This document shows positions 40,785-57,490 of a stretch of 64,000 bases of DNA, piece by piece. Numbering within the stretch: position 1 is the stretch's first letter; each line of letters starts with the position of its first letter. Source of the DNA: an uncultured Ruminococcus sp. (GTDB taxonomy: Bacteria; Bacillota; Clostridia; Oscillospirales; Ruminococcaceae); assembly GCA_902800795.1 (NCBI GenBank), contig CADCFQ010000012.1:1-64000 (forward strand), given 5' to 3'. The notes beneath the pieces are model-generated. The model made no database searches and was not told the DNA's origin. It saw only the letters and a list, made by a program, of their open reading frames with translations. The position numbers and the translations under genes are program-made.

Positions 40785-41030
40785 TTGGGAACAAGAGTTG
40801 CGATCATTGCGATCATCGTCGAGAACAAGAACTCCGTTGAGCGTATAAATGCCATTCTTCACGAGTATAAGGATGCGATCATCGGAAGAATGGGCATCCC
40901 TTACAAAGCGAAAGGCATAAGTATTATAAGCATAGCGGTAGATGCATCTCAGGATGACATAAATACTCTTGCAGGAAAGATAGGCAGACTTGACGGTGTT
41001 TCTGCAAAAACTGTATATTCTGCGAACTGA
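40785..41030 (+). CDS. TM1266-like putative iron-only hydrogenase system regulator
   Basis: An 81-residue ACT-like small protein (RVAIIAIIVENKNSVERIN, GISIISIAVDASQDDINTLAGKIGRL). This family typically sits with hydEFG genes and is annotated as a hydrogenase-system regulator. The start is TTG 40785 after AAGGAG. It opens the cluster with hydF and hydE. What it senses is not known. Confidence 0.85.
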   Translation: MGTRVAIIAIIVENKNSVERINAILHEYKDAIIGRMGIPYKAKGISIISIAVDASQDDINTLAGKIGRLDGVSAKTVYSAN

Positions 41031-41079
41031 ATTTAATAATTTCAATCTGTTTCTAACGCCGAAAATAGTATTTGAGGCG

Positions 41080-41127
41080 AAAGTAAGATCATTGTTCAAA
41101 AACGTTTCGGTCGGATTCTTACTTTTT
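41080..41127 (+). terminator. Hairpin between the TM1266-like gene and hydF
   Basis: A stem (AAAGTAAGATC pairing with GATTCTTACTTT, one bulge) with a T-run. It may attenuate transcription into the 13-kb cluster. Confidence 0.55.
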
Positions 41128-41170
41128 GAAGGATCCGGCTTTTTTTCATAAGCTATAAAGGGTGATAAAT

Positions 41171-42367
41171 ATGGGACTTAATTCAACACCTTCATCGGAG
41201 AGGATACATATAGGTTTCTTTGGCGTTAGAAACGCCGGAAAATCAAGCCTTGTCAACGCTGTGACAAATCAGGAGCTTGCTGTAGTTTCGGATACTCCGG
41301 GCACAACTACCGATCCTGTGACCAAAGCTATGGAGCTTTTACCTCTGGGTCCTGTCGTTATAATCGACACTCCCGGTTTTGATGACGAGGGAGCTCTTGG
41401 AGAGCTTCGTGTTAAAAAGACATCACAGGTGCTCAACAGAGTAGATATCGCTGTTCTGGTCACAGATATAACTAAGCCTCTCTGTGAATGTGAAAGGCAG
41501 CTCATTGGTCTTTTTGAAGACAAGAAGATACCATATCTTATTGTCGGGAATAAGAATGACCTTTCTGATAAAGCCCCTGACGGCGAGAGATTTGCTGTCA
41601 GTGCGCTAAACAAAGCCAACATTTATGAGCTGAGAGAAAAGATCGCTTCTCTTGTTGAGACAAAGGATCAGACTCATCGGATAGTCGGCGATATTATCAA
41701 AGAAAACGAGCTGGCTGTGCTTGTTGTCCCGATAGATAAGGCAGCGCCTAAAGGCAGGCTTATCCTGCCGCAGCAGATGGTTATAAGGGATATCCTTGAA
41801 TCAGGCGCTTGCTCGGCGGTTGTCCGTGAAACGGAATTGCCGTACACGCTTGAAAACCTTGTAAGCAGACCGGCTGTTGTTATCACAGACAGTCAGGCTT
41901 TCACTAAGGTCGCTAAGGATACTCCGGAAGACATCAAGCTGACATCGTTTTCCATCCTTATGGCAAAATACAAGGGCTTCCTTGAAACGGCAGTAAAGGG
42001 CGCTGCGGCAATATCAAAGCTTAAAGACGGCGACAGGATACTTATCTCAGAGGGCTGCACACATCACAGACAGTGCGGCGATATAGGAAGCGTCAAGCTT
42101 CCTGCGCTTTTAAAAAAGACAACGGGCAAACAGCTTGAGATAGAGCTTAGCTCCGGCAGGGAGTTCCCCGAGGACCTTGAGCGCTTTGCTATGGTCATCC
42201 ATTGCGGCGGCTGTATGCTCAACGAAAGAGAAATGCTTTACAGGATGAGAACTGCAGTTGACAACGGAGTTCCTTTTACTAATTACGGAGTTGCGATAGC
42301 TCATATGAACGGGATACTTTCAAGAAGCCTCGAGGTTTTCCCCGAGGTCAGAAAGCTCCTTGATTAA
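41171..42367 (+). CDS. hydF: [FeFe]-hydrogenase maturation GTPase HydF
   Basis: A 398-residue scaffold on which the diiron subcluster of the H-cluster is finished before transfer to HydA. The GTPase domain shows GVRNAGKSS and DTPGFDD, with NKNDLSD. The C-terminal domain has the Fe-S ligands in EGCTHHRQCGDIG and VIHCGGCM. The ATG 41171 follows AAAGGGTG. It is followed by hydE, while hydG is missing from the locus. Confidence 0.95.
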   Translation: MGLNSTPSSERIHIGFFGVRNAGKSSLVNAVTNQELAVVSDTPGTTTDPVTKAMELLPLGPVVIIDTPGFDDEGALGELRVKKTSQVLNRVDIAVLVTDITKPLCECERQLIGLFEDKKIPYLIVGNKNDLSDKAPDGERFAVSALNKANIYELREKIASLVETKDQTHRIVGDIIKENELAVLVVPIDKAAPKGRLILPQQMVIRDILESGACSAVVRETELPYTLENLVSRPAVVITDSQAFTKVAKDTPEDIKLTSFSILMAKYKGFLETAVKGAAAISKLKDGDRILISEGCTHHRQCGDIGSVKLPALLKKTTGKQLEIELSSGREFPEDLERFAMVIHCGGCMLNEREMLYRMRTAVDNGVPFTNYGVAIAHMNGILSRSLEVFPEVRKLLD

Positions 42368-42385
42368 TAAACAGCAGGTGATCGT

Positions 42386-43432
42386 GTGGGAGATAAAGTA
42401 AAGAAGCTTATTGATAAGCTGAACAAGAATAAACATCTTGACAGGGAAGAGTGGCTCACTGTTCTCGGAGAATGGGATGAAAGTGACAGAGAGTATGCGG
42501 CAGATATCGCCAGAGCTGTCAGTGAAGGTGTTTTCGGAAAGAAGATATATATCAGAGGTATCGTTGAGTTTTCAAACGTCTGTAAAAATGACTGTCTTTA
42601 CTGCGGTATCAGACGCTCAAACAAAAACGCTCAAAGATACAGACTGACAGATGATGAGATACTGATGTGCTGTGATGAGGGCTATGAATACGGCTTCCGT
42701 ACTTTTGTTCTGCAAAGCGGTGAGGACCTTTCATATTCTGCAAAGCGTATAGCTGATATAGTTTCGAGGATCAAAAAGGCTCATCCTGACTGTGCGGTCA
42801 CACTTTCTCTCGGAGAAAAGGAGTATGACGAGCTGAAGCTTATGCGCCAAGCAGGTGCTGACAGATATCTGCTAAGACACGAAACTGCTAACGAGGAGCA
42901 CTATAAAAAGCTTCATCCGTCTGATATGTCTTTTTCTCACAGAATGAAGTGTCTTGAGGATCTTAAATCTCTGGGCTATCAGACAGGTGCCGGCATAATG
43001 GTAGGTTCGCCTTATCAGACTATCGACTGCCTGGCTGATGATATGGCTTTCTTTGAGAGCTTCAGACCGGAAATGATCGGAATCGGTCCTTTCCTTCCTC
43101 ATAAAGACACGCCGTTCTGTGATGAACCCAAGGGCTCTTATGAGCTGACGTTGTTCCTTCTTAGCCTTTGCAGGATACTGCTCCCGAGAGTTTTACTGCC
43201 TGCAACGACTGCCCTTGGAACGATAAGACCGAACGGACGTGAACAGGGAGTCCTCTCGGGTGCCAATGTAATAATGCCGAATCTTTCTCCGACAGCTGTA
43301 CGTAAGAAGTATATGCTTTATGACGGAAAGATCTGCACCGAGGATTCCAGCGATGAATGCCGCAGCTGCATTCAGGCGAGAATGAAACGAATAGGCTATG
43401 AGGTCGAGATATCGAGAGGAGATTTTAAATGA
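42386..43432 (+). CDS. hydE: Radical SAM [FeFe]-hydrogenase maturase HydE
   Basis: A 348-residue radical SAM enzyme. The 4Fe-4S/SAM motif CKNDCLYC lies at about 60-67, and the regions [14 protein letters not shown] and GSPYQT are typical of HydE. By current understanding HydE takes the Fe(CO)2(CN)cysteine complex made by HydG and prepares it for dimerisation. It starts at GTG 42386 and its stop overlaps the start of the NifH-like gene (ATGA), tying H-cluster maturation to the nitrogenase-like genes. Confidence 0.93.
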
Positions 43433-44190
43433 TTAAGCTAGCGATATACGGAAAAGGCGGGATCGGTAAGTCTACTATATCCTGTAACATGGCTGCTTGC
43501 TTTGCGAGAAAAGGCTATAGTGTCATGCAGATCGGCTGCGACCCTAAAGCCGACTCAACTTCGCTGCTTCACGGCGGTGAAAGGATAGATACAGTTCTTG
43601 ATCTTAGCCGTAAAAAAGGCAAGGGCTTAACACTTGATGATATTGTCTGTGAGGGCGCATTTGGAGTTAAATGTGTTGAAGCAGGCGGCCCTGTTCCGGG
43701 GCTCGGATGTGCCGGCAGAGGTGTTATAAATGCGCTTGAGACCCTTGAAAAGCTTGGCGCTTATGAAAAATACAAGCCTGACATTGTTATATATGACATC
43801 CTCGGTGATGTTGTCTGCGGCGGCTTTTCCATGCCTATGAGAAAGGGCTATGCAGACAAGGTCTTCGTAGTGACATCGGGAGAGAAGATGTCGATATACG
43901 CTGCTGCAAATATCTGCATGGCGGTCGAGAACTTCAAAGGCAGAGGTTATGCATCCCTTGGCGGAGTTATCCTTAACAGACGAGGTGTTGAAGACGAAGA
44001 TAAAGCTGCGGCTGAACTTGCTAAAGACTTTGGAACTTCGGTTATCGGCTCGATCGACCGCTGCGAGGAGATACCTCGTGCAGAGAAAGCAGGAAAGACT
44101 GTTTCTGAAGTAAGCCCTGATTCTGAAGTGCAAAAACAGCTCGACTCCCTGGCCCAGAGAATACTTGACAGCTTCGGAGGTGCCTTATGA
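43429..44190 (+). CDS. NifH-like reductase ATPase, copy 1
   Basis: A 253-residue nitrogenase-iron-protein homologue. It has the P-loop GKGGIGKST, switch region [10 protein letters not shown], and both cluster-bridging cysteines, Cys94 in GLGCAGRG and Cys130 in GDVVCGGF. As a homodimer it should carry one 4Fe-4S cluster and pass electrons to a partner at the cost of ATP. It is shorter than true NifH (about 290) and lacks its usual C-terminal tail. It overlaps hydE and the D-like gene by 4 bases each. It belongs to the broad nitrogenase-like group rather than to nitrogen fixation. Confidence 0.92.
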
Positions 44191-45503
44191 GCCGCACTGA
44201 CGGGCTTGACAAGCCCTGCTTTGTGAAGATAAAAGACGCAAACAGAGATGAGCTCTTTGCATCGGGTCTTGAGTATAATCCCCCGGCAAGAGGAATGTGG
44301 AACATTGTCCATTCGGGAATGCTTCTACCGGGAGCACACGAGATCTTTGCCTGTGCCCAGGGATGCTTAAGAGGCGTTATCCTGACGGCAGCCGAGATGC
44401 TGGAGCTTGACCGTTTAAGCTGGATATCCGTTTCGGAGAGTGATATGTTCGACGGAACGCTGGAGAGCGATATCGTTGACGGAGTCTGTGAGATCATTGA
44501 GAAGCTTGATAAAAAGCCTCCTGTCATTTTGCTTTATCTTAGCTGTATTCATCTTTTTGTCGGAGTTGATTTTGAGGCTATTATAAGCGAGCTTTCGCAA
44601 AAGCATCCTGAAATAACCTTTGTTGACTGCTATATGACGCCAACAATGAGGCAGACTGTTTCTCCTGTTGCAAAGATGAGTTCACAGCTCTACTGTGCTT
44701 TAAAGCCCCTTCCGCTTAAAGATAAGGTAGTAGGTATAGTCGGAAACGACCGGGCAACGGATGAGGATTCAGAGCTTGTCAAGATCATAAGGAGTGCCGG
44801 ATGCGAGCTTCGTGATATAACTCTTTGCAAGACCTTTGAAGAGTATCTGACACTTGCCGAGTGCAGCCTGAATATAAGTTATATCCCTACAGGTTTCCTG
44901 GCAGGAGAAGATCTAGAGCACAGACTTGGCGCAAATCACCTTCATCTGCCTGCTAGATACAGCTATGAGGGCATAAAAGACAATTACAAGAGGCTCTGCG
45001 ATGAACTCGGCATAGATATGCCTGACTTTTCACACGATGAAGCGGCAGCAGAAAAGTCATTGTTAAAAGCAAAGGAGATCATCGGTGACACGCCCATCGC
45101 TATCGACTTTACAGCAGTTACAAGGCCTTTCGAGCTTGCATGGCTGCTTTGCGAGCACGGATTCAATGTTAAGCATATAATCGCAGACAGCGCCGCAGGT
45201 GAGGAAGACAGTTTTGATAAGCTCTGCGCTCACGATCCTGAGATAAAGATCTGGTATGCGGTCAATGTCAATATGCTTGAAATGCCTGAGCAGGATCACG
45301 AACATATCCTGGCTGTGGGGCAAAAGGCAGCTTATTATTTTGCAACAGACAGTTTTGTAAATATCATAGTCAACGGCGGTTATTACGGTTTTTCGGGCAT
45401 AGCAAAGATAGCTGACCTGATGATCGATGCATATAATACGCCAAAGGACAGACGGGAAGTGCTCAGGCTCAAGGGCATGGGCTGTGCGAGCTGTCTTGTT
45501 TGA
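44187..45503 (+). CDS. NifD-like nitrogenase component 1 subunit, copy 1
   Basis: A 438-residue member of the oxidoreductase/nitrogenase component 1 family. Candidate P-cluster-type cysteines are Cys56 and Cys60 (FACAQGC) and Cys120 (LYLSCIHLF). The C-terminus ends in an unusual GMGCASCLV with a CxxC pair. No convincing FeMo-cofactor Cys/His pair is seen. It is about 50-100 residues shorter than NifD. Partner of the K-like protein encoded next. The bound cofactor and reaction are unknown. Confidence 0.85.
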
Positions 45504-45516
45504 GGAGGGCAGTTAT

Positions 45517-46662
45517 ATGAAAAATGTTTCTAAGATCATACCTTGCTATGCTGCCGATACCTCGGGAGTATGCTCGGCGCTTTACGAGCTTGGCGGCCTG
45601 ACGGTCGTTCACGATGCTTCGGGCTGCAATTCGACTTATTCTACTCATGATGAGCCCAGATGGTATGATGTACGCTCAAAGATATACATATCAGCGATGA
45701 CTGAGCTTGATATGGTGCTTGGCAATGATGAAAAGTTTATCTCTGATGTTGTCTCTGCTGCTCACGATCAGGAACCTGAGTTCATTTCTATCTGCGGTTC
45801 TCCTATGCCTATGATGACCGGATTTGATTATGATGCTGTTGCTTATGAGATCGGGCAGAGAAGCGGGATAAAGACCATCCCTCTTCATACAAACGGCACA
45901 AGATCATATATCGAGGGTGCTTCCGAAGCATTTGTTGAGATCATTAAGGCTTATGCCGAAGAGACAGAGAAAACCAAAAACGGTGTCAATGTTTTAGGCC
46001 TTACACCGCTTGACTTTCCTCTGGGAGCAGATAGGGATATAAAAAAATGGCTTGATGAAAACGGCTTTAAGTGTATCTGTACCCTTGCTATGGGCTGTAC
46101 AGTTGATGATGTAAGAAAAATGGCCGGTGCTGCTTTAAATCTCGTTGTTTCACATTCGGGACTTGCAGCAGCCGAGTATATGAAGGAACAGTTCGGGATA
46201 CCCTATGTTTGCGGTGTTCCTTTTGGAAAAGGCTTCTCAAAGAAACTCGCTGATCACATGATCAGTGTTATCACTGACAGCGACAGCTTTTCACCCTTTG
46301 TTCTTCCGTGTGACGGCTTTCCCGATGCCGATACTATAATTATCGGCGAGAGCATTACCTCGGGATCTCTGGCAGCAGCGCTATGGTCTGATATGAAGAT
46401 CACGGCTAAACCCCTCTGCACTCTTCCGTCTCATAGGTTTTTCACAAGGCACAGCGCCGAAGATATTTATGCAGAGGAAGATATAGAAGCATATCTCAAG
46501 GAGACGGCACCTAAGACTGTTATTGCCGACCCTCTTTACAAATACATACTACCGAAAGAGACAAAGCTGATAACACTTCCGCATTTTGCTTTTTCGGGAC
46601 GGTGCTTTGCTAAAGATATGCACAGCCTTATAAATAGGGAAATAAAGGAGTATTTCAAATGA
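45517..46662 (+). CDS. NifK/E-like nitrogenase component 1 subunit, copy 1
   Basis: A 381-residue component 1 family protein. Cys10 ([13 protein letters not shown]) and Cys37 (HDASGC) match the spacing of NifK P-cluster ligands, and [13 protein letters not shown] supplies a third cysteine in the right region. The start at 45517 follows GAGGAGGG; the frame opens further into the D-like gene. It ends [24 protein letters not shown] in part, a segment conserved in copy 2 as LPHFAVSGR. Expected to pair with the D-like subunit as a heterotetramer. Confidence 0.85.
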
Positions 46663-47423
46663 TAAAGATCGCTCTTTACGGAAAAGGCGGTATCGGAAAA
46701 TCGACCTGCACGTCCAATCTCTCTGCTGCTTTCGCAAAGCTTGGAAAAAAGGTCATACAGATCGGCTGCGACCCGAAAGCAGACTCTACGATAAATCTGC
46801 TTCACGGTGACCCTGTTATGCCTGTAATGGATTATATGAGGATACACGACGAGGAGCCCGACAGGATCGAGCAGATCTCAAAGGTTGGGTTCGGCGGTGT
46901 CGTATGTATTGAAACAGGCGGCCCTACACCCGGTCTTGGCTGTGCGGGACGTGGAATAATCACGACTTTCAGTCTGCTTGAGCAGCTTGAACTGTTTGAT
47001 ACAGTGAAGCCCGATGTTGTGCTTTATGACGTACTCGGCGATGTTGTGTGCGGTGGCTTTGCAGCACCGATAAGAGAGGGCTATGCCGAAAAGATTCTGA
47101 TAGTGACCTCAGGCGAAAAAATGGCGCTTTATGCTGCGAATAATATAAACAGTGCAGTAAAGAACTTTGAAGACAGAAGCTATGCCAAGGTAAGAGGCAT
47201 AATAATGAACAGAAGAAATGTCGAGAATGAGGAAGAGAAGGTAAGAGCTTTCGCAGAGAGTTCAGGGCTTGATATTGCTGCTGATATACCCCGTTCCGCT
47301 GATATCATAAAGTATGAGGATATGGGTATGACCTGCGTTGAGGGTGATCCTGAATGCGAGACTTCAAAGCGCTTCCTTGAGCTTGCTAAGCTGCTTATAA
47401 GTGAGGATGAGAATAATGACTGA
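46659..47423 (+). CDS. NifH-like reductase ATPase, copy 2
   Basis: A 254-residue paralogue of copy 1 with the same motifs: [18 protein letters not shown], Cys95 (GLGCAGRG) and Cys131 (GDVVCGGF). It overlaps the preceding K-like gene by 4 bases and the next D-like gene by 8. Both Fe-protein copies therefore look active, and the second probably serves its own D/K pair. Confidence 0.92.
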
Positions 47424-48714
47424 TGCTTACTATATTACAGCCGCCGAGCTTGCAAAGACGGGTATTGATGATCTCCCGACGGAGCTTAATTCCGCAAAGC
47501 ACATGATCTACAGCTCTCCGGCTACTCTTGATTTCAATTCTCCCGGCGCCAGAGGCTTCGGCGTCAAAAGGGCAGGACTTGCAATACCGGGTTCTGTGAT
47601 GCTTCTAATTGCGCCCGGCTGCTGCGGCCGAAACACAGCTCTGCTCAATGAGCTTGGCTACAGTGAAAGATTTTTCTATCTGATGCTCGACGACACGGAT
47701 ATCGTGACAGGAAGATATATAAGCAAGATACCTAAAGCCTGCGCAGAGCTTCTTGAAGAGCTTGATGAAAAGCCTTCGGTTGTTATGCTTTGTGTTACCT
47801 GCGTCGATGCGCTCCTTGGAACAGATATGGAGAGAGTCTGCCGTGCCTGTGAAGAAGAAACGGGCGTCAGGACCGCCCCAGCATATATGTATGCGCTGAC
47901 AAGGGAAAAAAGGCTCCCGCCTATGGGGCTTGTTAGAAAGTCAGTATACTCACTTCTTGAACCGCAGAAACGCCGTTCAAACGAATGCGCTGTTATGGGT
48001 TATTTCTCGGCGCTTGAAGATGGCTGTGAGCTCTACGATATGCTTAAAGCTATTGGTATAAAGAAGGTCCACGAGCTTGGCAGATGCAAAACATTTGAAG
48101 AGTATAAAGACATCTCAAGGGCAAATTTCAGTCTGGTGCTAAATTCCGAAGCCAGGGCAGCTGCACAGGATATGCAGTCCCGCTTAGGGATACCTTTTAT
48201 TGAGCTTACAAGAGTCTACAGACTCTCAAAGATACACAACCAGTATATGCTTCTCGGTCAGGCGATCGGTTCAGAGTTCGATGATTCTGAATATTACCGC
48301 AGAGCAGAGAAGTCTGTAAATGACTTTAAAGAAAAATACAGCGATACCGTGTTTGCGATCGGCGAGAGCCTGAACGCAGACAGCTTCGAGCTTGCACTCG
48401 CACTCACAGAATACGGCTTCAAGGTGGCTGAGATATACGGTACTGTCGGAGAAAGAAACTTTGTGTTCGTAAAGAAACTTGCGGAAGTTTCTCCCGAAAC
48501 GAGGATCTATTCAAATCTTTCTCCGACAATGATGAACTATATCCCGATGAGTGGTGTAACGGCCGCCATCGGTGCTGACGCTGTGTATTATCACAAAGAT
48601 TGTGCCGGAGTCTGCTTTAATGAAGAAGAGCAGCCTTTTGGCTACAGGGGCGTTGAGCTTTTGTTTGAAAAGCTTACAAAAGCGCTGAATGACAGGGAGG
48701 AGAGTGTGTTATGA
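47416..48714 (+). CDS. NifD-like nitrogenase component 1 subunit, copy 2
   Basis: A 432-residue component 1 family protein with Cys69-Cys70 (APGCCGRNT) and Cys126/Cys129 ([13 protein letters not shown]) in the P-cluster-ligand regions, and DCAGVCF late in the protein. The start at 47416 gives the family start; two in-frame codons before it lie inside the NifH-like gene. The ligand pattern differs from copy 1, which suggests a different cluster or a scaffold role, as NifEN does relative to NifDK. Confidence 0.84.
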
Positions 48715-49751
48715 AAAAGCTTCTGAAACATATTTCTCCTATTGCTCCCGATGATTCCGGAGCCTGCTCGGTGCTGTATGAAATGGGCGGTATCACCGTT
48801 ATATGTGATGCAGGCGGCTGCGCAGGAAACGTCTGCGGATTTGATGAGCCGAGGTGGTTTGAAAAGAGATCAGCTCTTTTCTCGGCAGGCCTGAGAGATA
48901 TGGACGCTATCCTTGGCAGAGATGAGCTTCTGATTAAAAAGCTTGCTCTTATCTGCAAACAGGTCGATGCCAGGTTTACTGCTATAGTCGGGACCCCCGT
49001 TCCTGCTGTTATTGCTACCGATATGAGAGCTCTCGAAAAAATGGCAGAGAAAAAGACAGATCTTCCCGGAATTGCTCTTCCCACGGACGGAACAAGGCTT
49101 TATGACTACGGCGAAGAAATGGCTTATCTTAAGCTTTTTGAGCGCTTTGCCGTGGAAAAGCTCCCTGTTAAAAAAGGTCTTGTGGGCGTTCTGGGAGCTA
49201 CTCCGCTCAATACAGGCGAGACAGGCTCTGACAGGATAAAAAAAGAGCTTTCGGCTGATGAAAATGAAGAGATCGTTTGCTTTGGAATGGACAGCGGCAT
49301 TGATGACGTTATCAGAGCGAGCGAGTTTGAAAAGATAATTGTTATCGCTCCCTCCGGTCTTGCTGCTGCTAAGTATCTGAACAAAAAGTTCGGCATACCT
49401 TACGAAGTAAGAGGCTGCTGTATAAACGATGATGTTAGCTGTAAAGCCGACAAGCTTGTCGGCAAAAAGATCTTGATAATTCATCATCAGTTTACTGCAA
49501 ATGCTGTCAGAGACCGTCTTAAAGGCTGTGATGTCGTTTGTGCCAGCTGGTTCAGGATGATACCATCTCTCAAGAAGGAAAACGACATCCACATCAAAGA
49601 AGAACAGCAGCTTGCTGAGCTTGCAAAGGACGGCGGTTTCGATGTTATTATCGCAGACAGCTTTTTCAAGCGTGCGATGAAAGATTTTAAAGGACAGTGG
49701 ATAGATCTTCCGCATTTTGCTGTAAGCGGAAGACTCAATAAGGATTTATGA
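48711..49751 (+). CDS. NifK-like nitrogenase component 1 subunit, copy 2 (reduced ligand set)
   Basis: A 346-residue component 1 family protein, the shortest of the four. It keeps DSGACSVLYEMGG and DAGGC (Cys37), but the first ligand position is Pro instead of Cys (HISPIAPDD) and the third region is IVGTPVPAV without Cys. Extra cysteines lie at 32 and 42. A changed or absent P-cluster-like site is likely. It overlaps the D-like gene by 4 bases and is 1 base from hypF. Confidence 0.82.
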   Translation: MKKLLKHISPIAPDDSGACSVLYEMGGITVICDAGGCAGNVCGFDEPRWFEKRSALFSAGLRDMDAILGRDELLIKKLALICKQVDARFTAIVGTPVPAVIATDMRALEKMAEKKTDLPGIALPTDGTRLYDYGEEMAYLKLFERFAVEKLPVKKGLVGVLGATPLNTGETGSDRIKKELSADENEEIVCFGMDSGIDDVIRASEFEKIIVIAPSGLAAAKYLNKKFGIPYEVRGCCINDDVSCKADKLVGKKILIIHHQFTANAVRDRLKGCDVVCASWFRMIPSLKKENDIHIKEEQQLAELAKDGGFDVIIADSFFKRAMKDFKGQWIDLPHFAVSGRLNKDL

Positions 49752-49752
49752 T

Positions 49753-52065
49753 ATGACAACTGTAAATATTCATGTCTATGGGATAGTTCAGGGTGTCGGT
49801 TTCAGGCCGTTCACGGCTGTTTCGGCTTCAAAGTTCGGAATAAAAGGTACTGTCTCGAATAAAGGCTCCTATGTTGAGATCATAGCCCAGGGAGACCGGG
49901 ATGATATCGAGAACTTCATCGATGAGATAAGATACCGCCCGCCTGATCGTGCGGTCATTCTTGGTATCGATGAGCTGCCTTGCCACGAAGAACAGAGCTT
50001 TGACAGCTTTGAGATCATTGAGAGCGAAAAAGAGTACGGTGATATTTTCATATCCCCGGATATTGCGACCTGTGACAAATGCAAAGCTGAGCTCTTTGAT
50101 AAGTCTGACAGACGGTATCTTCACCCTTTTATCAACTGCACACAGTGCGGTCCACGTCTAACGATACTTGATTCTATGCCCTATGACAGAGTAAGAACGA
50201 GCATGAGCGAGTTCCCGATGTGTGATAAGTGTTCAGCTGAATACTATGATTCCAAAACAAGGCGTTACGATGCGCAGCCTGTCTGCTGCAACGACTGCGG
50301 ACCGGAGGTCTATATCCTCGGTTCGGATATAAAGGGCTCTGATGCGATAACTGCCGTCCGCAAAAGTATTATGGACGGAAAGATCGCAGCTATAAAAGGC
50401 ATCGGCGGTTTTCATCTTTGCTGCGATGCAAAGAACACCGAGGCAGTGGAAAGGCTTCGTAAGCTCAAGCGCCGCCCGATGAAACCCTTTGCGGTCATGA
50501 TGAAGGACCTTGATACCGTGAAGCGTGAGTGTGTCATAGCTGACGGCCAGGAGGAATACCTCACTGGCTGGCAGAAGCCGATCATGCTTCTGGAAAAGAA
50601 AGAAAAGCAGTCTATAAGCGACAGGATCGCTCCCGATAACCTGACAGTAGGCGTTATGCTTCCTTATGCGCCTGTGCAGATGCTCCTCTTTGATTATCCT
50701 GACGGGATAGAAATGAGCGACTGTCTTGTTATGACCAGCGGTAATGCCAGAGGCGCACCTATCTGCCGAAACGATGAGGACGCTGTCAAGGAGATAGGCG
50801 GTTTCTGCGATCTTATCCTTTCTCATAACAGAAAGATAAGGATAAGGGCAGACGATTCAGTCACAGACTGGCTTTACGGAAAGCCCTATATGATAAGACG
50901 TTCAAGAGGCTTTGCACCACTTCCTATAATGCTTGACAGTGACAAAACTAAGCAGGCGATGGCCATAGGCGGTGAGCTAAAAAACAGTTTCTGCGTTGCC
51001 AGAAACGGGATGCTCTACCTTTCTCCCTACATAGGTGATATGGCTGACATCAGGACTGTAAAGGCCCTTGAAGAATCATCCCGGAGGATGTGTGAGATGC
51101 TTGAAGCCGTGCCGGAAGCTGTTGTTTCAGACAAGCATCCTATGTATAATACTGTGTCTTTTGCAGAGGACTATGCTGAAAATCACAATGTACCGTTGGT
51201 ACAGATCCAGCATCATTATGCCCATATTCTTTCCTGTATGGCTGAAAACGGCTATGACGGCAAAGTGATAGGCCTTAGTCTTGACGGCACAGGATACGGC
51301 GATGACGGGACTATCTGGGGCGGAGAGATACTCCTTTCTGATTACAGCGGATTTGAACGCAAGGGTAGTATCAAGCCGTTTATCCAGGTCGGCGGAGATA
51401 TTTCCGCTAAAGAGGGCTGGCGTATCGCAGCAGCTATGCTTCGTGACTGCTTTGGCGAAGAGGGAAGCGAAGTTTGCCAGAAGCTTGGTATATGCTCTGA
51501 AAAAGAATATGCTCTTATCGGCATGATGGCTGACAAGCACATCAACAGTGTCGTATCGACAAGCTGCGGAAGGCTGTTTGATGCGGTGTCTGCTATCCTC
51601 GGGATAAGGCGGGCATCTACCTATGAGGGCGACGCTTCAACAGCTCTAATGTATCACGCACAGCTGTTTGAAAAAGAGCTTGGTGATAAAGAGTTTACAA
51701 GCGGCTTTGCCGGAAACCTGATATCTGATAATGAGGGCTGTATCACCCTTGAGACCGATGCTCTGGTAAAATATATCGCAGAGCAGCTCCTGGATAACAG
51801 TTCTCCGGACATCAACAGACTTGCCTACGAGTTTCACTGCACTCTGTCTGATATGCTCATTAAAGCATCCGAGAGAGTAAGAGAGCTTTGCGGTATAGAC
51901 ACAGCTGCATTGAGCGGCGGCGTGTTCCAGAACAAGCTTCTGGTAAGGCTTACAAATGAGGGCCTTAGAAGCAGGGGATTCAATGTCCTGCTTCACAGCC
52001 TGGTCCCGCCGAATGACGGCGGTATTGCCCTCGGTCAGGCGGCTTATGCCGTGAAACAAAGATAA
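49753..52065 (+). CDS. hypF: Carbamoyltransferase HypF
   Basis: A 770-residue protein that activates carbamoyl phosphate and loads the carbamoyl group on HypE as the cyanide precursor for Fe(CN)2CO. Domains in order: acylphosphatase (YGIVQGVGFRPF), two zinc-finger pairs (CDKCKAELF, CTQCGP, CDKCSAEYY, CNDCGP), YrdC-like (KGIGGFHLCCDA) and the Kae1/TobZ-like domain (IQHHYAHILSCM, SLDGTGYGDDG). Full length. Its coupling to the K-like gene with a 1-base gap shows that the Hyp and nitrogenase-like genes are coexpressed. Confidence 0.96.
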   Translation: MTTVNIHVYGIVQGVGFRPFTAVSASKFGIKGTVSNKGSYVEIIAQGDRDDIENFIDEIRYRPPDRAVILGIDELPCHEEQSFDSFEIIESEKEYGDIFISPDIATCDKCKAELFDKSDRRYLHPFINCTQCGPRLTILDSMPYDRVRTSMSEFPMCDKCSAEYYDSKTRRYDAQPVCCNDCGPEVYILGSDIKGSDAITAVRKSIMDGKIAAIKGIGGFHLCCDAKNTEAVERLRKLKRRPMKPFAVMMKDLDTVKRECVIADGQEEYLTGWQKPIMLLEKKEKQSISDRIAPDNLTVGVMLPYAPVQMLLFDYPDGIEMSDCLVMTSGNARGAPICRNDEDAVKEIGGFCDLILSHNRKIRIRADDSVTDWLYGKPYMIRRSRGFAPLPIMLDSDKTKQAMAIGGELKNSFCVARNGMLYLSPYIGDMADIRTVKALEESSRRMCEMLEAVPEAVVSDKHPMYNTVSFAEDYAENHNVPLVQIQHHYAHILSCMAENGYDGKVIGLSLDGTGYGDDGTIWGGEILLSDYSGFERKGSIKPFIQVGGDISAKEGWRIAAAMLRDCFGEEGSEVCQKLGICSEKEYALIGMMADKHINSVVSTSCGRLFDAVSAILGIRRASTYEGDASTALMYHAQLFEKELGDKEFTSGFAGNLISDNEGCITLETDALVKYIAEQLLDNSSPDINRLAYEFHCTLSDMLIKASERVRELCGIDTAALSGGVFQNKLLVRLTNEGLRSRGFNVLLHSLVPPNDGGIALGQAAYAVKQR

Positions 52066-52115
52066 TGACCGCTTAACGGTTAAGATAAGATTTTTATAAT
52101 GAAAGGACGATAAAT

Positions 52116-52325
52116 ATGTGTGTTGGATTATCTGCAAGAGTTGTCAGTGTCAAGGATCAGACAGCTGTTATCGAGGCAGGCGGAGCACAGCGTGCTGTGA
52201 GCGCCGGAGTTCTCGAGGAGCTTGAGCCCGGGGACTATGTTATGGTCCATGCCGGTGTAGCTATCGCTAAGATCACAGAAAGCGATGATGAACAGACAGA
52301 TGAAGTAATGGAGAGCTTGCTATGA
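52116..52325 (+). CDS. hypC: Hydrogenase maturation chaperone HypC
   Basis: A 69-residue HypC/HybG protein. It starts with MCVGL, giving the essential Cys2 that holds the iron together with HypD. In NiFe systems HypC delivers the Fe(CN)2CO unit to the hydrogenase large subunit. Here no such subunit is encoded nearby. It overlaps hypD by 4 bases. Confidence 0.93.
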   Translation: MCVGLSARVVSVKDQTAVIEAGGAQRAVSAGVLEELEPGDYVMVHAGVAIAKITESDDEQTDEVMESLL

Positions 52326-53374
52326 ATGAACAGATCAAAGCTGCCAGAGACATAATCACAGGATACAAGGGGAGACCCATTCGTATCATGGAAGTCTGCG
52401 GCACTCATACCCATGAGATATTCAGACTGGGCATAAGAAAGCTCCTGCCTGAAAACATTGACGTTATTTCCGGCCCAGGCTGTCCTGTCTGCGTAACTGC
52501 GGTAGGATACATCGATGAGGCCTGCTGGCTGGCGCTTGAAAAAAACTGCATCATCTGTACCTTTGGTGATCTTATAAAGGTCCCCGGAACGGAGATGAGC
52601 CTTGCAGGCGCAAGAGCAAAGGGAGCACAGGTAAGGCCTGTGTACTCTCCGCTGGATGCAGTAGAGCTTGCAAAGGAAAACCCTGACAAACAGGTCGTTT
52701 TTCTTGCTGTCGGTTTTGAGACGACAACTCCTTCTGCCTGTCTCGCTGCAAAGCAGGCTAAAGAAGAAGGACTTGAAAACTTTTCTCTCCTGACAGCCAA
52801 TAAAACTATGCCGAATGCTTATAACGCTCTTGTCGGCAGTGCTGATGCATTTATCTATCCCGGTCACGTTAATGCGATCACAGGAAATGCAGCCTGTAAA
52901 AAGCTTTGCGAAGAAAAGGGCGTTTCGGGTGTTGTCGCCGGATTTACGGCAAATGAGCTTCTTATAGCCCTTGCTGTTGCGATAAAGCTTCTGGAAAAGG
53001 GCGAGCCTTTCTTCAAAAACTGTTATCCTCGTGTTGTCAAGGACGAGGGCAACCTCTCGGCGATAAAGCTTATGGATGAGGTCATGGAACCCTGTGATAG
53101 CGAATGGAGGGGGCTGGGAGTCATCCCTATGTCAGGTATGAAGCTCAGAGAAGAATATGCCGGCTATGATTCAAGGATAAAGTATTCTATGCCCGAGATA
53201 AAAGGCAGACCTAATCCTGCCTGCCGCTGCGGTGATGTTCTTCAGGGCAAGTGCAAGCCGAGCGACTGTAAGGTCTTCGGCAAGGTGTGCACACCGCTTC
53301 ACCCTGTTGGTGCTTGTATGGTGTCTGACGAGGGTGCCTGCTCGGCTTATTATCAGTATTCAGGAATAATATGA
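52322..53374 (+). CDS. hypD: Fe(CN)2CO scaffold protein HypD
   Basis: A 350-residue 4Fe-4S protein on which iron receives cyanide and carbon monoxide ligands. Motifs CGTHTHEIFR with the iron-binding Cys, GPGCPVC, GFETTTP and the C-terminal cluster ligands CRCGDVLQGKC and CTPLHPVGAC are present. Length is normal. Confidence 0.96.
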   Translation: MNEQIKAARDIITGYKGRPIRIMEVCGTHTHEIFRLGIRKLLPENIDVISGPGCPVCVTAVGYIDEACWLALEKNCIICTFGDLIKVPGTEMSLAGARAKGAQVRPVYSPLDAVELAKENPDKQVVFLAVGFETTTPSACLAAKQAKEEGLENFSLLTANKTMPNAYNALVGSADAFIYPGHVNAITGNAACKKLCEEKGVSGVVAGFTANELLIALAVAIKLLEKGEPFFKNCYPRVVKDEGNLSAIKLMDEVMEPCDSEWRGLGVIPMSGMKLREEYAGYDSRIKYSMPEIKGRPNPACRCGDVLQGKCKPSDCKVFGKVCTPLHPVGACMVSDEGACSAYYQYSGII

Positions 53375-53392
53375 TTTCGGAGGAGTAAAACA

Positions 53393-54400
53393 ATGAGTTC
53401 AAATACAGTAACGCTTGCTCACGGCGCAGGCGGAAAACAGACAAGTGATCTTATCGACAAGGTTTTCAAAGCACATTTTTCAAATCCCGAGTTTACAGCA
53501 GATGATGCGGCAGTTTTGCCGAAGATCGACTCAAAGCTTGCATTCACAACAGACGGTTTTATAGTGTCTCCATGGAAGTTCAACGGCGGAAACATCGGAA
53601 AGCTTTCTATCTGCGGAACAGTAAACGATCTGTCCTGTATGGGAGCTAAGCCTATGTATATGACCTGCGGCTTTGTTATTGAAGAGGGATTCGACCTTGA
53701 TGACCTCGAGCAGATAGCTGCCGCTATGGAAAAAACAGCTGCTGAAGCCGGTGTAAAGATAGTTGCAGGCGACACAAAGGTAGCCGGCAAGGGACAGGTA
53801 GACGGCGTTTTCATTACAACAACCGGGATCGGTTCTGTTCAGGAAGGAGCTGATACCTCGGGTAAATATGCAAGACCGGGTGATGCTGTCATCGTTACAG
53901 GCGATGTCGGAAGACATGGATGCACGATCCTGCTCGCAAGAGACGAATTCGGCATCGAGTCGGATGTGGACAGCGACTGTGCTCCTCTCTGGGGAACAGT
54001 AAGCTCTATATTTGAGGTCACAAAGGACGTCCATGTTATCCGTGATGCTACAAGAGGCGGAGTCGGAACAGTTCTTTATGAGATCGCAGAGCAGAGCGAT
54101 GTAGGTATCACTCTTGATCAGACCGCTATCCCTGTTGATGATAGAGTTAAGGGCGTCTGCGGTATGCTGGGACTTGAACCGCTTTATCTTGCCTGTGAGG
54201 GAAGACTTGTTATTTTTGCTCCGGCGGAGAATGCTGAAAAGATAGTTGAGAAGCTGAGAGAAGGGAAGTATTCCAAGAATGCAGCTATCATAGGCAGAGT
54301 TACGGAGGATAACAAGGGAAAGGTCATAATGGAGACCGAAATTGGCACCCAGACAATTCTTCCGCAGCCAAAGGGAGAACTCCTTCCCAGGATCTGTTAA
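53393..54400 (+). CDS. hypE: Cyanide-forming maturation protein HypE
   Basis: A 335-residue PurM-like ATP-dependent enzyme. It takes carbamoyl from HypF and dehydrates it to thiocyanate on its C-terminal cysteine; the sequence ends PRIC as required. N-terminal AHGAGGKQT and the block ATRGGVGTVL are typical. It closes the cluster, which is followed by a terminator. No hypA or hypB is found. Confidence 0.96.
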   Translation: MSSNTVTLAHGAGGKQTSDLIDKVFKAHFSNPEFTADDAAVLPKIDSKLAFTTDGFIVSPWKFNGGNIGKLSICGTVNDLSCMGAKPMYMTCGFVIEEGFDLDDLEQIAAAMEKTAAEAGVKIVAGDTKVAGKGQVDGVFITTTGIGSVQEGADTSGKYARPGDAVIVTGDVGRHGCTILLARDEFGIESDVDSDCAPLWGTVSSIFEVTKDVHVIRDATRGGVGTVLYEIAEQSDVGITLDQTAIPVDDRVKGVCGMLGLEPLYLACEGRLVIFAPAENAEKIVEKLREGKYSKNAAIIGRVTEDNKGKVIMETEIGTQTILPQPKGELLPRIC

Positions 54401-54410
54401 GGAACCTGAA

Positions 54411-54450
54411 AAATTTACCCGTATGTATTTTTATACGGGTGAATTTTTTT
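54411..54450 (+). terminator. Terminator of the hyd/nif-like/hyp cluster
   Basis: A 14-bp stem (AAATTTACCCGTAT with one G-T pair) followed by a run of T, right after hypE. Confidence 0.85.
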
Positions 54451-55804: not shown

Positions 55805-57490
55805 ATGAGCGCAACTGAGATCATTATTGTTAAGCCTGACAAGTGCGTTGGATGTAATGCCTGTGTCAGGACCTGCCCCGCACCCGAGGCAAATATAACC
55901 AAGATGCTTGATGACGGTCGTTTTGTAACTACCGTTAATCCTGAAAAATGTATAACCTGCGGCGAGTGTGTAAGAAACTGTGCACACGGCGCAAGAGACT
56001 ATATCGATGATACTGACGCTTGTATGTCCCGTGTAGGCAGAGAGAAGATGATAATCCTGGCTACACCTGCTATCAAGACTGTTTTCCCGACTAAATGGAA
56101 GGGCATACTTGACTGGTTCAAAGCCAAGGGATGTCTAATTTACGACGTTTCTCTCGGAGCCGATATTTGTACATGGGCACATCTCAGATCGATAGAGCAG
56201 AGAAAGGTCGGTAATGTTATTACTCAGCCCTGTGCTGCTATCGTTAAGTACATAGAGATCTATCAGCCTAAGCTTCTTCCGAATCTTTCGCCGATCCACA
56301 GTCCTATTTCCTGTGCGGTCACTTACATAAAGAAGTATCTCAAGAGATCAAATCCTATCGCAGTTCTTACTCCCTGCATAGCAAAGAAGAATGAGTTCAT
56401 GGAGACAGGCCTTGTTGATTTCAATGTCACATTCAACAAGCTTTCGGAGTATTTCGACAAGAACGGCATCAAGATAGCTGTTAATGCTGCTAATGACTTT
56501 GAGTATAAGTTTGAGGAGCAGCAGGGTCAGGTCGGTGCGGTCTATCCTCGTCCAGGCGGACTTCGTGATAACCTCTGGCTGCATGATCCTGACATCAACA
56601 TCACCACTTCCGAGGGTGTTCATAAGGTTTATCCTGAGCTTGATATGTATGCTCAGATGCCTGAATTCAAGCATCCTGAGGTATTTGACGTTCTTTCCTG
56701 CGAGTTCGGATGTAATGTTGGTCCCGCATCGGGAACGACACAGACTGTTTTCGATGTGATGGCATCGATGAGAGAGATCGAAAAGGCTGCCAAAACAAAG
56801 CGTAAGACAGGCGTTTTCAGAGGTGGTGAGGATAAGCTTTTCAAAAAGTTTGATGACGAACTCAAGATCAGCGATTTCTTGAGAACTTACAGACCCTCTA
56901 CGCCTACTCCGCTGCCTACAGACAGACAGCTCGACGCTGTATTTGAGATGATGGGCAAGCATACAGAAGAAGAGCGCAACTTCAATTGCCATGCCTGTGG
57001 ATATAATTCTTGCCGTGATATGGCGATCGCTATATGCAGAGGCCTGAACACTTCTGATAACTGTATCGTTCATGCAAAGAGCGTTCTTACAGCAAGACAC
57101 AGCGAACTGACTGCTCAGCACGAGCTGCTCAGTGAGATCACAAATGAGTGTCTTTCACTTTCCGATAAGCTCAGAGATGACCTCAAGAATATCACTACGA
57201 ATATGGATACTATCGGTGAATCCACATCCAAGACCAGCGACAGAGCAGGTGTTGTTAACGATCTGCTTACTAAGGTCATTTCGTTCTGCAAGAGCACGAA
57301 TAATATGGACGCATCGAGCATCGGACAGCTTGTTGAGATACTTGAGACAACATTGGGCGCATTTAAGGATCTGGACAACAATGTCAATGCTACAAATGAG
57401 AGCTCGGAGATCATCCGTAATTCTATAGGCGAGATCAGCAGTCTTGTTGACAACATCAACGACAGCCTCCGCAAAACACAAAAAGAATAA
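55805..57490 (+). CDS. HydS-like [FeFe]-hydrogenase homologue, putative sensor
   Basis: A 561-residue cytoplasmic protein. Two 4Fe-4S ferredoxin motifs (CVGCNACVRTC and CITCGECVRNC) are followed by an Fe-hydrogenase large-subunit domain with variant H-cluster loops: TQPCAAI, TPCIAKKNE and SCEFGCNVG, keeping the four cluster cysteines. A second Fe-S motif (CHACGYNSC) lies near 395-420. The C-terminal 130 residues are helical, like a signalling coiled coil. This matches sensory hydrogenases (HydS) more than catalytic HydA. No PAS domain or phosphatase is visible. Confidence 0.82.
   Translation: MSATEIIIVKPDKCVGCNACVRTCPAPEANITKMLDDGRFVTTVNPEKCITCGECVRNCAHGARDYIDDTDACMSRVGREKMIILATPAIKTVFPTKWKGILDWFKAKGCLIYDVSLGADICTWAHLRSIEQRKVGNVITQPCAAIVKYIEIYQPKLLPNLSPIHSPISCAVTYIKKYLKRSNPIAVLTPCIAKKNEFMETGLVDFNVTFNKLSEYFDKNGIKIAVNAANDFEYKFEEQQGQVGAVYPRPGGLRDNLWLHDPDINITTSEGVHKVYPELDMYAQMPEFKHPEVFDVLSCEFGCNVGPASGTTQTVFDVMASMREIEKAAKTKRKTGVFRGGEDKLFKKFDDELKISDFLRTYRPSTPTPLPTDRQLDAVFEMMGKHTEEERNFNCHACGYNSCRDMAIAICRGLNTSDNCIVHAKSVLTARHSELTAQHELLSEITNECLSLSDKLRDDLKNITTNMDTIGESTSKTSDRAGVVNDLLTKVISFCKSTNNMDASSIGQLVEILETTLGAFKDLDNNVNATNESSEIIRNSIGEISSLVDNINDSLRKTQKE

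What the first reader, a model, noticed from the sequence alone, without database searches (positions are those of the whole stretch)
40785..54400. Hybrid operon: [FeFe] maturases + two nitrogenase-like triads + HypCDEF
One strand carries a TM1266-like regulator, hydF, hydE, then two complete H-D-K-like nitrogenase homologue sets, then hypF, hypC, hypD and hypE. Several junctions overlap by 4-8 bases and the gap to hypF is 1 base, so coexpression is built in. HydEF and HypCDEF normally serve unrelated hydrogenase classes. Joined with nitrogenase-like ATP-driven reductases, they suggest a pathway in which an iron unit with CO/CN ligands is made and reduced or inserted into a further cluster. 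The locus has no NiFe hydrogenase, no nifB/E/N, and no marker of the F430, bacteriochlorophyll or methylthio-alkane reductase systems. I do not know of a described system with this content.
Basis: partly seen in the sequence, partly recalled or inferred. Interest (0 to 1): 0.95.

Follow-up and report, generated by a model that had tools for sequence, protein, structure and literature searches.

The report
Nitrogenase-like replacement for hydrogenase maturase HydG
Many rumen and gut bacteria and several CO-eating acetogens carry one or two nitrogenase-like enzymes, often beside proteins normally used to build nickel-iron hydrogenases, and nearly all genomes checked here that carry them lack HydG, the enzyme that normally starts the active site of iron-iron hydrogenases; these enzymes likely do HydG's job by a route not described in the papers searched.

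Summary
The operon is real and conserved: hydF-hydE-(H1-D1-K1)-(H2-D2-K2)-hypF-hypC-hypD-hypE, one strand, closed by a terminator-like hairpin. Among 118 hydE-bearing genomes of the order, triad 1 (H1D1K1) occurs in 11, none with hydG; of the other 107, 103 have hydG (Fisher p about 1e-12). Of 50 further triad genomes from three phyla, 49 lack HydG, Ruminococcus albus among them. K1 proteins also occur in Clostridium ljungdahlii, C. ragsdalei and C. carboxidivorans, where a 2022 survey found no typical HydG and had only hypotheses. On the HydE tree the HydG/triad label changes at least three times. Triad 2 lies with hyp genes wherever the contig runs on; in seven genomes that block is replaced by a FecBCD-type importer, in two genera with its ATPase fused to a TM1266 hydrogenase domain. 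So triad 1 is the likely HydG substitute, and triad 2 plus HypCDEF (or the importer) likely supplies its Fe-CN/CO precursor. H1/H2 keep nitrogenase Fe-protein residues; D and K proteins lie outside the Nif and Bch rows of the tree. The chemistry is inferred; no enzyme was assayed.

The parts
40785..41030 (+). TM1266-like putative [FeFe]-hydrogenase system regulator
   Evidence: PF21699 108.7 bits; also beside hydE in HydG-type loci
41109..41140 (+). terminator-like hairpin between TM1266 gene and hydF (possible attenuator)
   Evidence: 12-pair stem followed by T-run; consensus match only
41162..42367 (+). hydF, H-cluster maturation GTPase/scaffold
   Evidence: TIGR03918 551 bits, cut-off 325.55
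42386..43432 (+). hydE, radical SAM H-cluster maturase
   Evidence: TIGR03956 547 bits, cut-off 254.6
43429..44190 (+). H1: NifH-like ATP-dependent reductase of triad 1
   Evidence: PF00142 293.7 bits; P-loop lysines and both [4Fe-4S] cysteines conserved; H1 clade 98*
44187..45503 (+). D1: NifD-like subunit of triad 1, C-terminal Cys tail
45517..46662 (+). K1: NifK-like subunit of triad 1 (ORF open from 45427; start by homology 45517)
   Evidence: PF00148 112 bits; homologues start here; K1 clade 92
46659..47423 (+). H2: NifH-like reductase of triad 2
   Evidence: PF00142 290.5 bits; cluster cysteines conserved
47401..48714 (+). D2: NifD-like subunit of triad 2
   Evidence: PF00148 85.4 bits; D2 clade 100*
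48711..49751 (+). K2: NifK-like subunit of triad 2
   Evidence: PF00148 49.8 bits; K2 clade 100*
49753..52065 (+). hypF, carbamoyltransferase (cyanide ligand synthesis)
   Evidence: TIGR00143 740.6 bits
52116..52325 (+). hypC, Fe-CN/CO carrier chaperone, starts Met-Cys
   Evidence: TIGR00074 58.2 bits; MCV start in 62 of 65 loci
52322..53374 (+). hypD, Fe(CN)2CO assembly scaffold
   Evidence: TIGR00075 417.4 bits
53393..54400 (+). hypE, thiocarboxamide dehydratase, ends PRIC
   Evidence: TIGR02124 429.1 bits; C-terminal Cys in 47 of 47 loci
54408..54449 (+). terminator-like hairpin closing the operon
   Evidence: 18-pair stem with T-rich tail; consensus match only

Best explanation
This operon is likely a HydG-independent pathway for the [FeFe]-hydrogenase H-cluster, in which the nitrogenase-like triad H1-D1-K1 would supply HydE with the CO/CN-ligated iron unit that HydG normally makes. 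Shown: the gene content, the absence of HydG beside HydE, HydF and a canonical HydA, the near-exclusive distribution of triad 1 and HydG, and the coupling of triad 2 with hypFCDE. Inferred: HypF and HypE would make cyanide from carbamoyl phosphate and HypC-HypD would build Fe(CN)2(CO), as in [NiFe] maturation; the H2-D2-K2 enzyme, driven by ATP and low-potential electrons, would release or reduce that unit and/or reduce CO2 to CO; H1-D1-K1 would then finish an Fe(CO)2(CN)-type synthon for HydE, after which HydE and HydF work as usual. In the variant without hypFCDE and triad 2, a FecBCD-type importer would bring in an equivalent precursor. The substitution of HydG is the part I hold at 0.72; the division of chemistry between the two triads is a guess (about 0.3).
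For: (1) Own genome: canonical group-A HydA with TSCCPGW / IPCTAKKFE / EVMACPGGCINGGGQ motifs, HydE and HydF, but the only HydG-model hits are HydE itself and a ThiH (526 bits to ThiH, 197 to HydG, cut-off 312). (2) 237 order genomes, one draw: HydE in 118, HydG in 103, all inside the 118; triad 1 in 11, all HydE+ and HydG-; 0 of 11 against 103 of 107, p = 1.4e-12. (3) 50 further triad genomes (50 of the 80 kept loci, chosen for spread): HydG in 1, C. drakei. (4) [FeFe]-hydrogenase domain in 59 of the 61 triad genomes searched. (5) Among labelled genes hydG comes next after hydE in 29 of 37 loci that I chose and fetched from other genomes (3 of the 37 were chosen for lacking HydG); in triad genomes H1 follows hydE. 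(6) HydE tree: the triad label needs 4 changes, at least 3 forced by well-supported branches; 32 triad-type and 29 HydG-type HydE share 110 invariant columns and show one clear class difference (three divergent HydG-type rows left out), which suggests the same substrate. (7) R. albus [FeFe]-hydrogenases are described as isolated and characterised (review passages; strain 7), and R. albus strains 8 and KH2T6 carry the operon without HydG (L092, L093). PMC9431212 reports no typical HydG in C. ljungdahlii, carboxidivorans, coskatii, ragsdalei and AWRP; K1 homologues are named from ljungdahlii, ragsdalei and carboxidivorans. (8) H1-D1 are one natural fusion ORF in L120.
Against: No biochemistry. 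C. drakei has both HydG and the triads; C. scatologenes has a K1 homologue and a HydG by PMC9431212, so the two can coexist. The same paper also reports, in all its acetogens except C. autoethanogenum, a radical SAM protein of about 450 residues with an atypical C-terminal Cys motif that might be a divergent HydG, and cites weak (about 1%) activation in vitro without HydG; no such extra HydG-like hit stood out in C. luticellarii, but I did not test those species. Four HydE+ genomes of the order lack both HydG and triad (G042 fragmentary, G074 weak HydE, G088, G232). HydE lies beside triad 1 in 55 of 80 loci and was not sought elsewhere in those 50 genomes. Fe(CN)2(CO) has the wrong CN:CO ratio for the HydE substrate, so a ligand exchange must be assumed. 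Related nitrogenase-like clusters with FecBCD importers exist without hydE.
Confidence: 0.72

Rival explanations
1. HypCDEF alone replaces HydG: the [NiFe]-type Fe(CN)2(CO) unit is handed to HydE, and the triads are accessory reductases.
For: HypCDEF sit in the operon while 45 of the 50 further triad genomes show no [NiFe] large subunit; HypC Met-Cys start and HypE C-terminal Cys are conserved.
Against: Of 7 importer-type genomes in the order draw, 6 show no HypD; the seventh (G224) has HypD on a contig that also has a (partial) [NiFe] large-subunit hit. All 7 lack HydG and keep triad 1.
Confidence: 0.1
2. The triads reduce or release an imported metal chelate or tetrapyrrole (an iron or corrinoid acquisition system) and lie next to hydEF only because both need iron; HydG's work is done by an unrecognised enzyme.
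For: Importer variants and hydE-free relatives on Treponema and Sporomusa plasmids pair nifHDK-like genes with FecCD/Peripla_BP_2-type transporters. PMC9431212 proposes an atypical HydG-like radical SAM protein in acetogens.
Against: Exclusivity with HydG at p about 1e-12 and at least three label changes on the HydE tree; TM1266 hydrogenase domain fused to the importer ATPase in two genera; 70 of 80 loci have Hyp genes rather than an importer; in many of the 50 genomes the HydG model finds only one or two hits of the score and length of HydE and ThiH (their identity is my reading).
Confidence: 0.14
3. The products of the operon build a new organometallic cofactor for an enzyme other than the classical [FeFe]-hydrogenase.
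For: No published precedent for the combination in the searches made; in some genomes only Ser-type HydA or sensory-like homologues were seen.
Against: HydE and HydF are ordinary by curated models, HydE shows almost no class-specific change, and HydA with the full catalytic motif is present in the window genome and in 17 of 30 HydA loci fetched.
Confidence: 0.09
4. Artefact: hydG is simply missing from incomplete assemblies.
For: The window genome is a 43-contig draft.
Against: HydG is absent from 11 of 11 order genomes with triad 1 (10 of them at least 97% complete) and from 49 of 50 others, while the same search finds HydG in 103 of the 107 remaining hydE genomes.
Confidence: 0.01

Closest known systems
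HydEFG maturation of [FeFe]-hydrogenase
   Same: HydE, HydF, TM1266-like protein and a canonical HydA; HydE nearly unchanged
   Different: No HydG; a nitrogenase-like triad stands after hydE, where hydG usually stands
HypCDEF part of [NiFe]-hydrogenase maturation
   Same: Full-length HypF, HypC, HypD, HypE with diagnostic residues
   Different: No [NiFe] large subunit found in this genome or in 45 of 50 relatives; in one operon with triad 2. HypA/HypB were not searched
Group IV nitrogenase-like reductases (MarHDK methylthio-alkane reductase, IsrHDK, NfaHDK, CfbCD)
   Different: No radical SAM MarB/NifB-like partner in the operon, the only radical SAM protein is HydE; H proteins score below the curated NifH and CfbC cut-offs
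Nitrogenase and DPOR/COR (NifHDK, BchLNB)
   Same: Fold; Fe-protein residues; D1 Cys56 and Cys120 and K1 Cys37 align with conserved NifD and NifK cysteines that I recall as P-cluster ligands
   Different: Outside the Nif and Bch rows of the tree; FeMo-cofactor Cys position not conserved in D1 or D2, His position neither, though its alignment is unsure
Uncharacterised FecBCD-linked nifHDK-like clusters (Treponema saccharophilum pTS1, Sporomusa termitida pSPTER)
   Same: Nearest rows in the trees (Sporomusa placement weak); same type of importer by annotation
   Different: No hydE or hydF annotated in the stretches fetched; D1, K1, D2 and K2 form their own clades

Membership tests
HydEFG H-cluster maturation system | HydE and HydF present | tested here: met
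   TIGR03956 547 bits and TIGR03918 551 bits, both over cut-off
HydEFG H-cluster maturation system | HydG present | tested here: not met
   Only HydE and ThiH hit the HydG model in the own genome, below cut-off
HydEFG H-cluster maturation system | Client [FeFe]-hydrogenase with H-cluster motifs in the genome | tested here: met
   NF040763 840 bits; three motifs intact
[NiFe]-hydrogenase maturation (HypA-F) | HypC, HypD, HypE, HypF with diagnostic residues | tested here: met
[NiFe]-hydrogenase maturation (HypA-F) | [NiFe] large subunit as client | tested here: not met
   PF00374: none in own genome, 5 of 50 relatives
[NiFe]-hydrogenase maturation (HypA-F) | HypA and HypB for nickel insertion | not tested
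   Not among the operon's genes; genome not searched for them
Nitrogenase (NifHDK) | H, D, K over curated cut-offs | tested here: not met
   H1 309.8 and H2 301.6 bits against 394.35; D1, K1, D2, K2 at most 64.5 bits to any Nif model, cut-offs 326.8 or more
Nitrogenase (NifHDK) | FeMo-cofactor ligands in the D subunit | tested here: not met
   Cys position: Cys in 1 of 23 D1 and 0 of 19 D2 rows; His position: 2 of 23 and 0 of 19, with that column's alignment unsure
Nitrogenase (NifHDK) | Fe-protein P-loop lysines and [4Fe-4S] cysteines in H | tested here: met
   Conserved in 73 H1 and 75 H2 rows
DPOR/COR (Bch/Chl) | Members over curated cut-offs or in the Bch clade | tested here: not met
   BchL 191 and 205 bits against 345; K1 to BchB 66 against 490; one BchL, BchN, BchB row each outside the triad clades
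CfbCD (F430 synthesis) | CfbC over cut-off and a CfbD-type partner | tested here: not met
   CfbC 305.7 and 291.1 bits against 402; no CfbD model hit listed for D1, K1, D2, K2
MarHDK methylthio-alkane reductase | Placement in the Mar clade | tested here: inconclusive
   No Mar sequence in the trees; weak profile matches (40-50 bits) and shared fold only
IsrHDK and NfaHDK | Placement in those clades | not tested
   No reference sequences fetched; groups known here from PMC11423573 passages

The most novel reading that the evidence does not exclude
Nature has a second, complete route to the H-cluster: two nitrogenase-type ATP-driven reductases convert the Fe(CN)2(CO) unit of the [NiFe] pathway, or an imported equivalent, into the Fe(CO)2(CN) synthon that HydE uses, so that [NiFe] and [FeFe] hydrogenases share one organometallic currency and tyrosine cleavage by HydG is not needed. 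It would be the main [FeFe] maturation route of many ruminococci and of industrial gas-fermenting clostridia.
Probability: 0.43. Interest if true: 0.97.

Novelty: categorically new. Interest (0 to 1): 0.93.

Why it matters
HydG is the only described source of the CO and CN ligands of the [FeFe]-hydrogenase active site. If a nitrogenase-like system replaces it, three things follow. A published puzzle, the missing hydG of gas-fermenting acetogens (PMC9431212), gets a concrete, testable answer. Nitrogenase-like enzymes gain a new role in building an organometallic cofactor. And HypCDEF stop being a marker of [NiFe]-hydrogenases, so genome-based predictions of hydrogen metabolism in the rumen, gut and industrial strains need correction. 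It may also offer another way to mature [FeFe]-hydrogenases for biotechnology.

Tried and rejected
Rejected: (a) that hydG is hidden elsewhere in the genome: the one good hit outside the window is ThiH by model, in what I read as a thi cluster. (b) That HypCDEF serve a [NiFe] enzyme here: none found. (c) That the triads are true nitrogenase: cut-offs, FeMo-cofactor positions and tree argue against. (d) That the layout is a one-genome oddity. (e) Class-specific HydE residues that would betray another substrate: one clear and eight mild differences.

The fold search with the D1 model (mean pLDDT 79) places it in the nitrogenase fold but ranks DPOR, V-, Fe- and Mo-nitrogenase, NifEN and Mar within a few Z units, so it does not tell the substrate. 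The reading of Cys positions against NifD/NifK rests on one alignment per subunit, and in the FeMo-cofactor His column one of the two NifD references does not carry His, so that column is unsure.

Rows dropped before counts: the HydE tree used 66 of 102 collected HydE (near copies and fragments left out) and the residue comparison left out three more, divergent HydG-type rows; the D/K tree used 81 of 109 rows; HydG was tested in 50 of the 80 loci kept out of 549 confirmed stretches. G148 and G124 matched K1 at 34% and 39% but belong to the broader importer-linked group, not the K1 clade, and G070 and G202 matched weakly (24-27% identity); these four were not counted as triad 1, so G148, which has HydG, stands in the HydG column. 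The first HydA search of the order draw scored only 7 candidates a genome, so its misses are not firm.

Full report
WHAT IS THERE. The window is contig C12 of a 2.54-Mb, 43-contig draft genome (97.3% complete, 0.39% contamination) whose nearest named relatives are Ruminococcus. From 40785 to 54400 on the + strand it encodes a TM1266-like protein, HydF, HydE, two NifH/NifD/NifK-like triads (H1-D1-K1 and H2-D2-K2), HypF, HypC, HypD and HypE. Five junctions overlap by 4 bases and K2/hypF are 1 base apart. An 18-pair terminator-like hairpin follows hypE at once; a second, 12-pair one separates the TM1266 gene from hydF. So hydF-to-hypE looks like one transcript; the TM1266 gene may be apart. These are consensus matches, not transcript data.

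THE KEY FACT. The same genome has a canonical [FeFe]-hydrogenase on contig C8 (NF040763, 840 bits; motifs TSCCPGW, IPCTAKKFE, EVMACPGGCINGGGQ) but no HydG: the HydG model finds only HydE and a ThiH. No [NiFe] large subunit was found. HydG is the known source of the CO and CN ligands and makes the Fe(CO)2(CN)(cys) synthon that HydE takes up (PMC12752695, passages read).

CO-OCCURRENCE. In one draw of 237 genomes of the order (at least 90% complete), HydE was found in 118 (117 over cut-off, one fragment), HydG over cut-off in 103, all within the 118. Triad 1 was found in 11, from 4 families and 7 genera: all have HydE, none has HydG. Of the other 107 HydE genomes 103 have HydG and 4 do not (G042, G074, G088, G232). 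Fisher p = 1.4e-12; this ignores relatedness. The HydE tree (66 of 102 HydE collected) addresses it: the triad label needs 4 changes, at least 3 forced by well-supported branches, namely a main triad clade of 29, plus G161, G218 and a Clostridium-like MAG (L120) among HydG-type HydE. A change may be a gain or a loss.

BREADTH. A scan of the GTDB species genomes with the K1 alignment confirmed 549 stretches, of which 80 were kept: Ruminococcus (including R. albus 8 and KH2T6, Ruminococcus sp. FC2018 and YE71), other Oscillospiraceae, Eubacterium, Clostridium drakei and C. luticellarii, Lentisphaeria/Victivallales, and a Spirochaetaceae MAG. In 50 of these 80 genomes HydG was sought: only C. drakei has it. 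HydE lies beside the triad in 55 of the 80 loci; it was not sought elsewhere in the 50 genomes. An [FeFe]-hydrogenase domain was found in 59 of the 61 triad genomes examined (misses G122, G264; G244 and G275 have only weak, sensory-like hits; one genome is probably counted twice). The 30 HydA loci fetched with that search (29 genomes with a triad, and G088 without) carry the L1, L2 and L3 motifs, but 13 of the 30 have Ser in place of the proton-transfer Cys, in importer-type and operon-type genomes alike.

LITERATURE LINK. A 2022 survey of eight acetogenic clostridia (PMC9431212, sections 11 and 17 read) found HydE and HydF in all but no typical HydG in C. carboxidivorans, C. ljungdahlii, C. 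sp. AWRP, C. coskatii and C. ragsdalei. The authors could give no straightforward explanation; they raised an atypical radical SAM protein as a possible HydG and HydG-free incorporation of trace CO and CN. They assign a HydG candidate to C. autoethanogenum. They also found HypCDEF in all eight but HypA/HypB in only three. K1 homologues are named from C. ljungdahlii, C. ragsdalei, C. carboxidivorans, C. scatologenes and C. drakei. The two fetched Clostridium loci, C. drakei and C. luticellarii, have H2-D2-K2-hypFCDE-H1-D1-K1 without adjacent hydE. R. albus HydABC is listed among isolated and characterised enzymes in a review (PMC6288185, passages); that work was on strain 7 (PMC6776011, passages), the genomes here are strains 8 and KH2T6.

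TWO MODULES. Triad 1 is the constant part. Triad 2 lies beside it in 78 of the 80 kept loci and Hyp genes in 70; the rest are cut or short contigs, except L131. In seven order genomes triad 1 instead comes with a FecCD permease, an ABC ATPase and a periplasmic-binding-type protein (by BLAST; by Pfam for examples), and six of these show no HypD. In two genera the importer's ATPase carries a C-terminal TM1266 domain, which ties the importer to hydrogenase maturation. In the two triad-1 genomes with HypD away from the triad (G224, G170), HypD is on the same contig as a partial [NiFe] large-subunit hit, i.e. probably ordinary Hyp. The simplest reading is that triad 2 + HypCDEF makes, and the importer takes up, a precursor that triad 1 uses.

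GENE ORDER. In HydG-bearing genomes the usual order is TM1266-hydE-hydG-hydF; among labelled genes hydG comes next after hydE in 29 of 37 loci that I chose and fetched (three of the 37 were chosen because HydG is missing; in a few the gap exceeds 200 bases). In triad genomes H1 follows hydE with a median overlap of about 5 bases (52 pairs). H1 and D1 are a single 698-residue ORF in L120.

MECHANISM. Likely: triad 1 replaces HydG. HydE is almost indistinguishable between the two kinds of genome (32 against 29 rows, 110 shared invariant columns, one clear class difference), so its substrate is probably the same Fe(CO)2(CN) synthon. HypEF would make cyanide, HypCD Fe(CN)2(CO) (known for [NiFe] maturation; recalled). 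Conversion to one CN and two CO needs CO and low-potential electrons; nitrogenase-type enzymes can reduce CO2 to CO and can reduce cyanide (recalled). Which triad does what is open. Points against are listed in Best explanation: coexistence in C. drakei, the atypical HydG candidates of the 2022 paper, four genomes with neither, and unclear clients in part of the genomes.

NOVELTY. Ten full-text searches of the open library returned no paper that I could see linking nitrogenase-like enzymes or HypCDEF to H-cluster maturation; I saw the listings, two sections of PMC9431212, and passages of seven papers in all. Subscription journals and preprints are mostly not held, so this is not proof of absence. 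All parts are known families; the pathway they imply is not a described kind.

Noticed in passing
L203-L214 (order genomes G003, G005, G017, G063, G139, G098, G085, G019, G195, G201, G231, G102): Group-A HydA homologues with TSCSPGW (Ser at the proton-transfer Cys) in 12 of 12 sampled genomes that lack both HydE and HydG; at least 92 of 237 order genomes have a group-A HydA hit without HydE. A similar hydA without hydEFG is noted for heliobacteria in PMC9147875 (passage). Either unmatured relatives or another maturation route.
   Followed up: partly
L161/L047 (G088) and L162/L048 (G232): HydE and HydF with no HydG and no triad; in G232 a BPD-type ABC permease lies between hydE and hydF, which could be a further replacement.
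   Followed up: no
L005 1339-4181 (own genome, contig C17): A third nitrogenase-like D/K pair, below all curated cut-offs (best NifE 177 bits, BchB 85 bits), apart from the two triads.
   Followed up: partly
L132 6000-12296 (Treponema saccharophilum pTS1); L135 1747-9071 (Sporomusa termitida pSPTER): Plasmid-borne nifHDK-like genes clustered with iron-type ABC importers and no annotated hydE: an uncharacterised wider family from which the triads may derive.
   Followed up: partly
window 55805-57490: Putative sensory [FeFe]-hydrogenase-like protein (PF02906 87 bits) downstream of the operon; a close homologue lies in the same locus in L057, L060 and L068.
   Followed up: no
L036 5358-6413, L032 1899-3005: ABC ATPase with a C-terminal TM1266 domain, a fusion that may give a handle on what TM1266 senses.
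   Followed up: no
window 41109-41140: Strong terminator-like hairpin between the TM1266 gene and hydF, possibly an attenuator.
   Followed up: no
P0002, P0006, P0008 and others: Several K1 proteins are annotated in public records as 'oxalate:formate antiporter', an evident misannotation.
   Followed up: no
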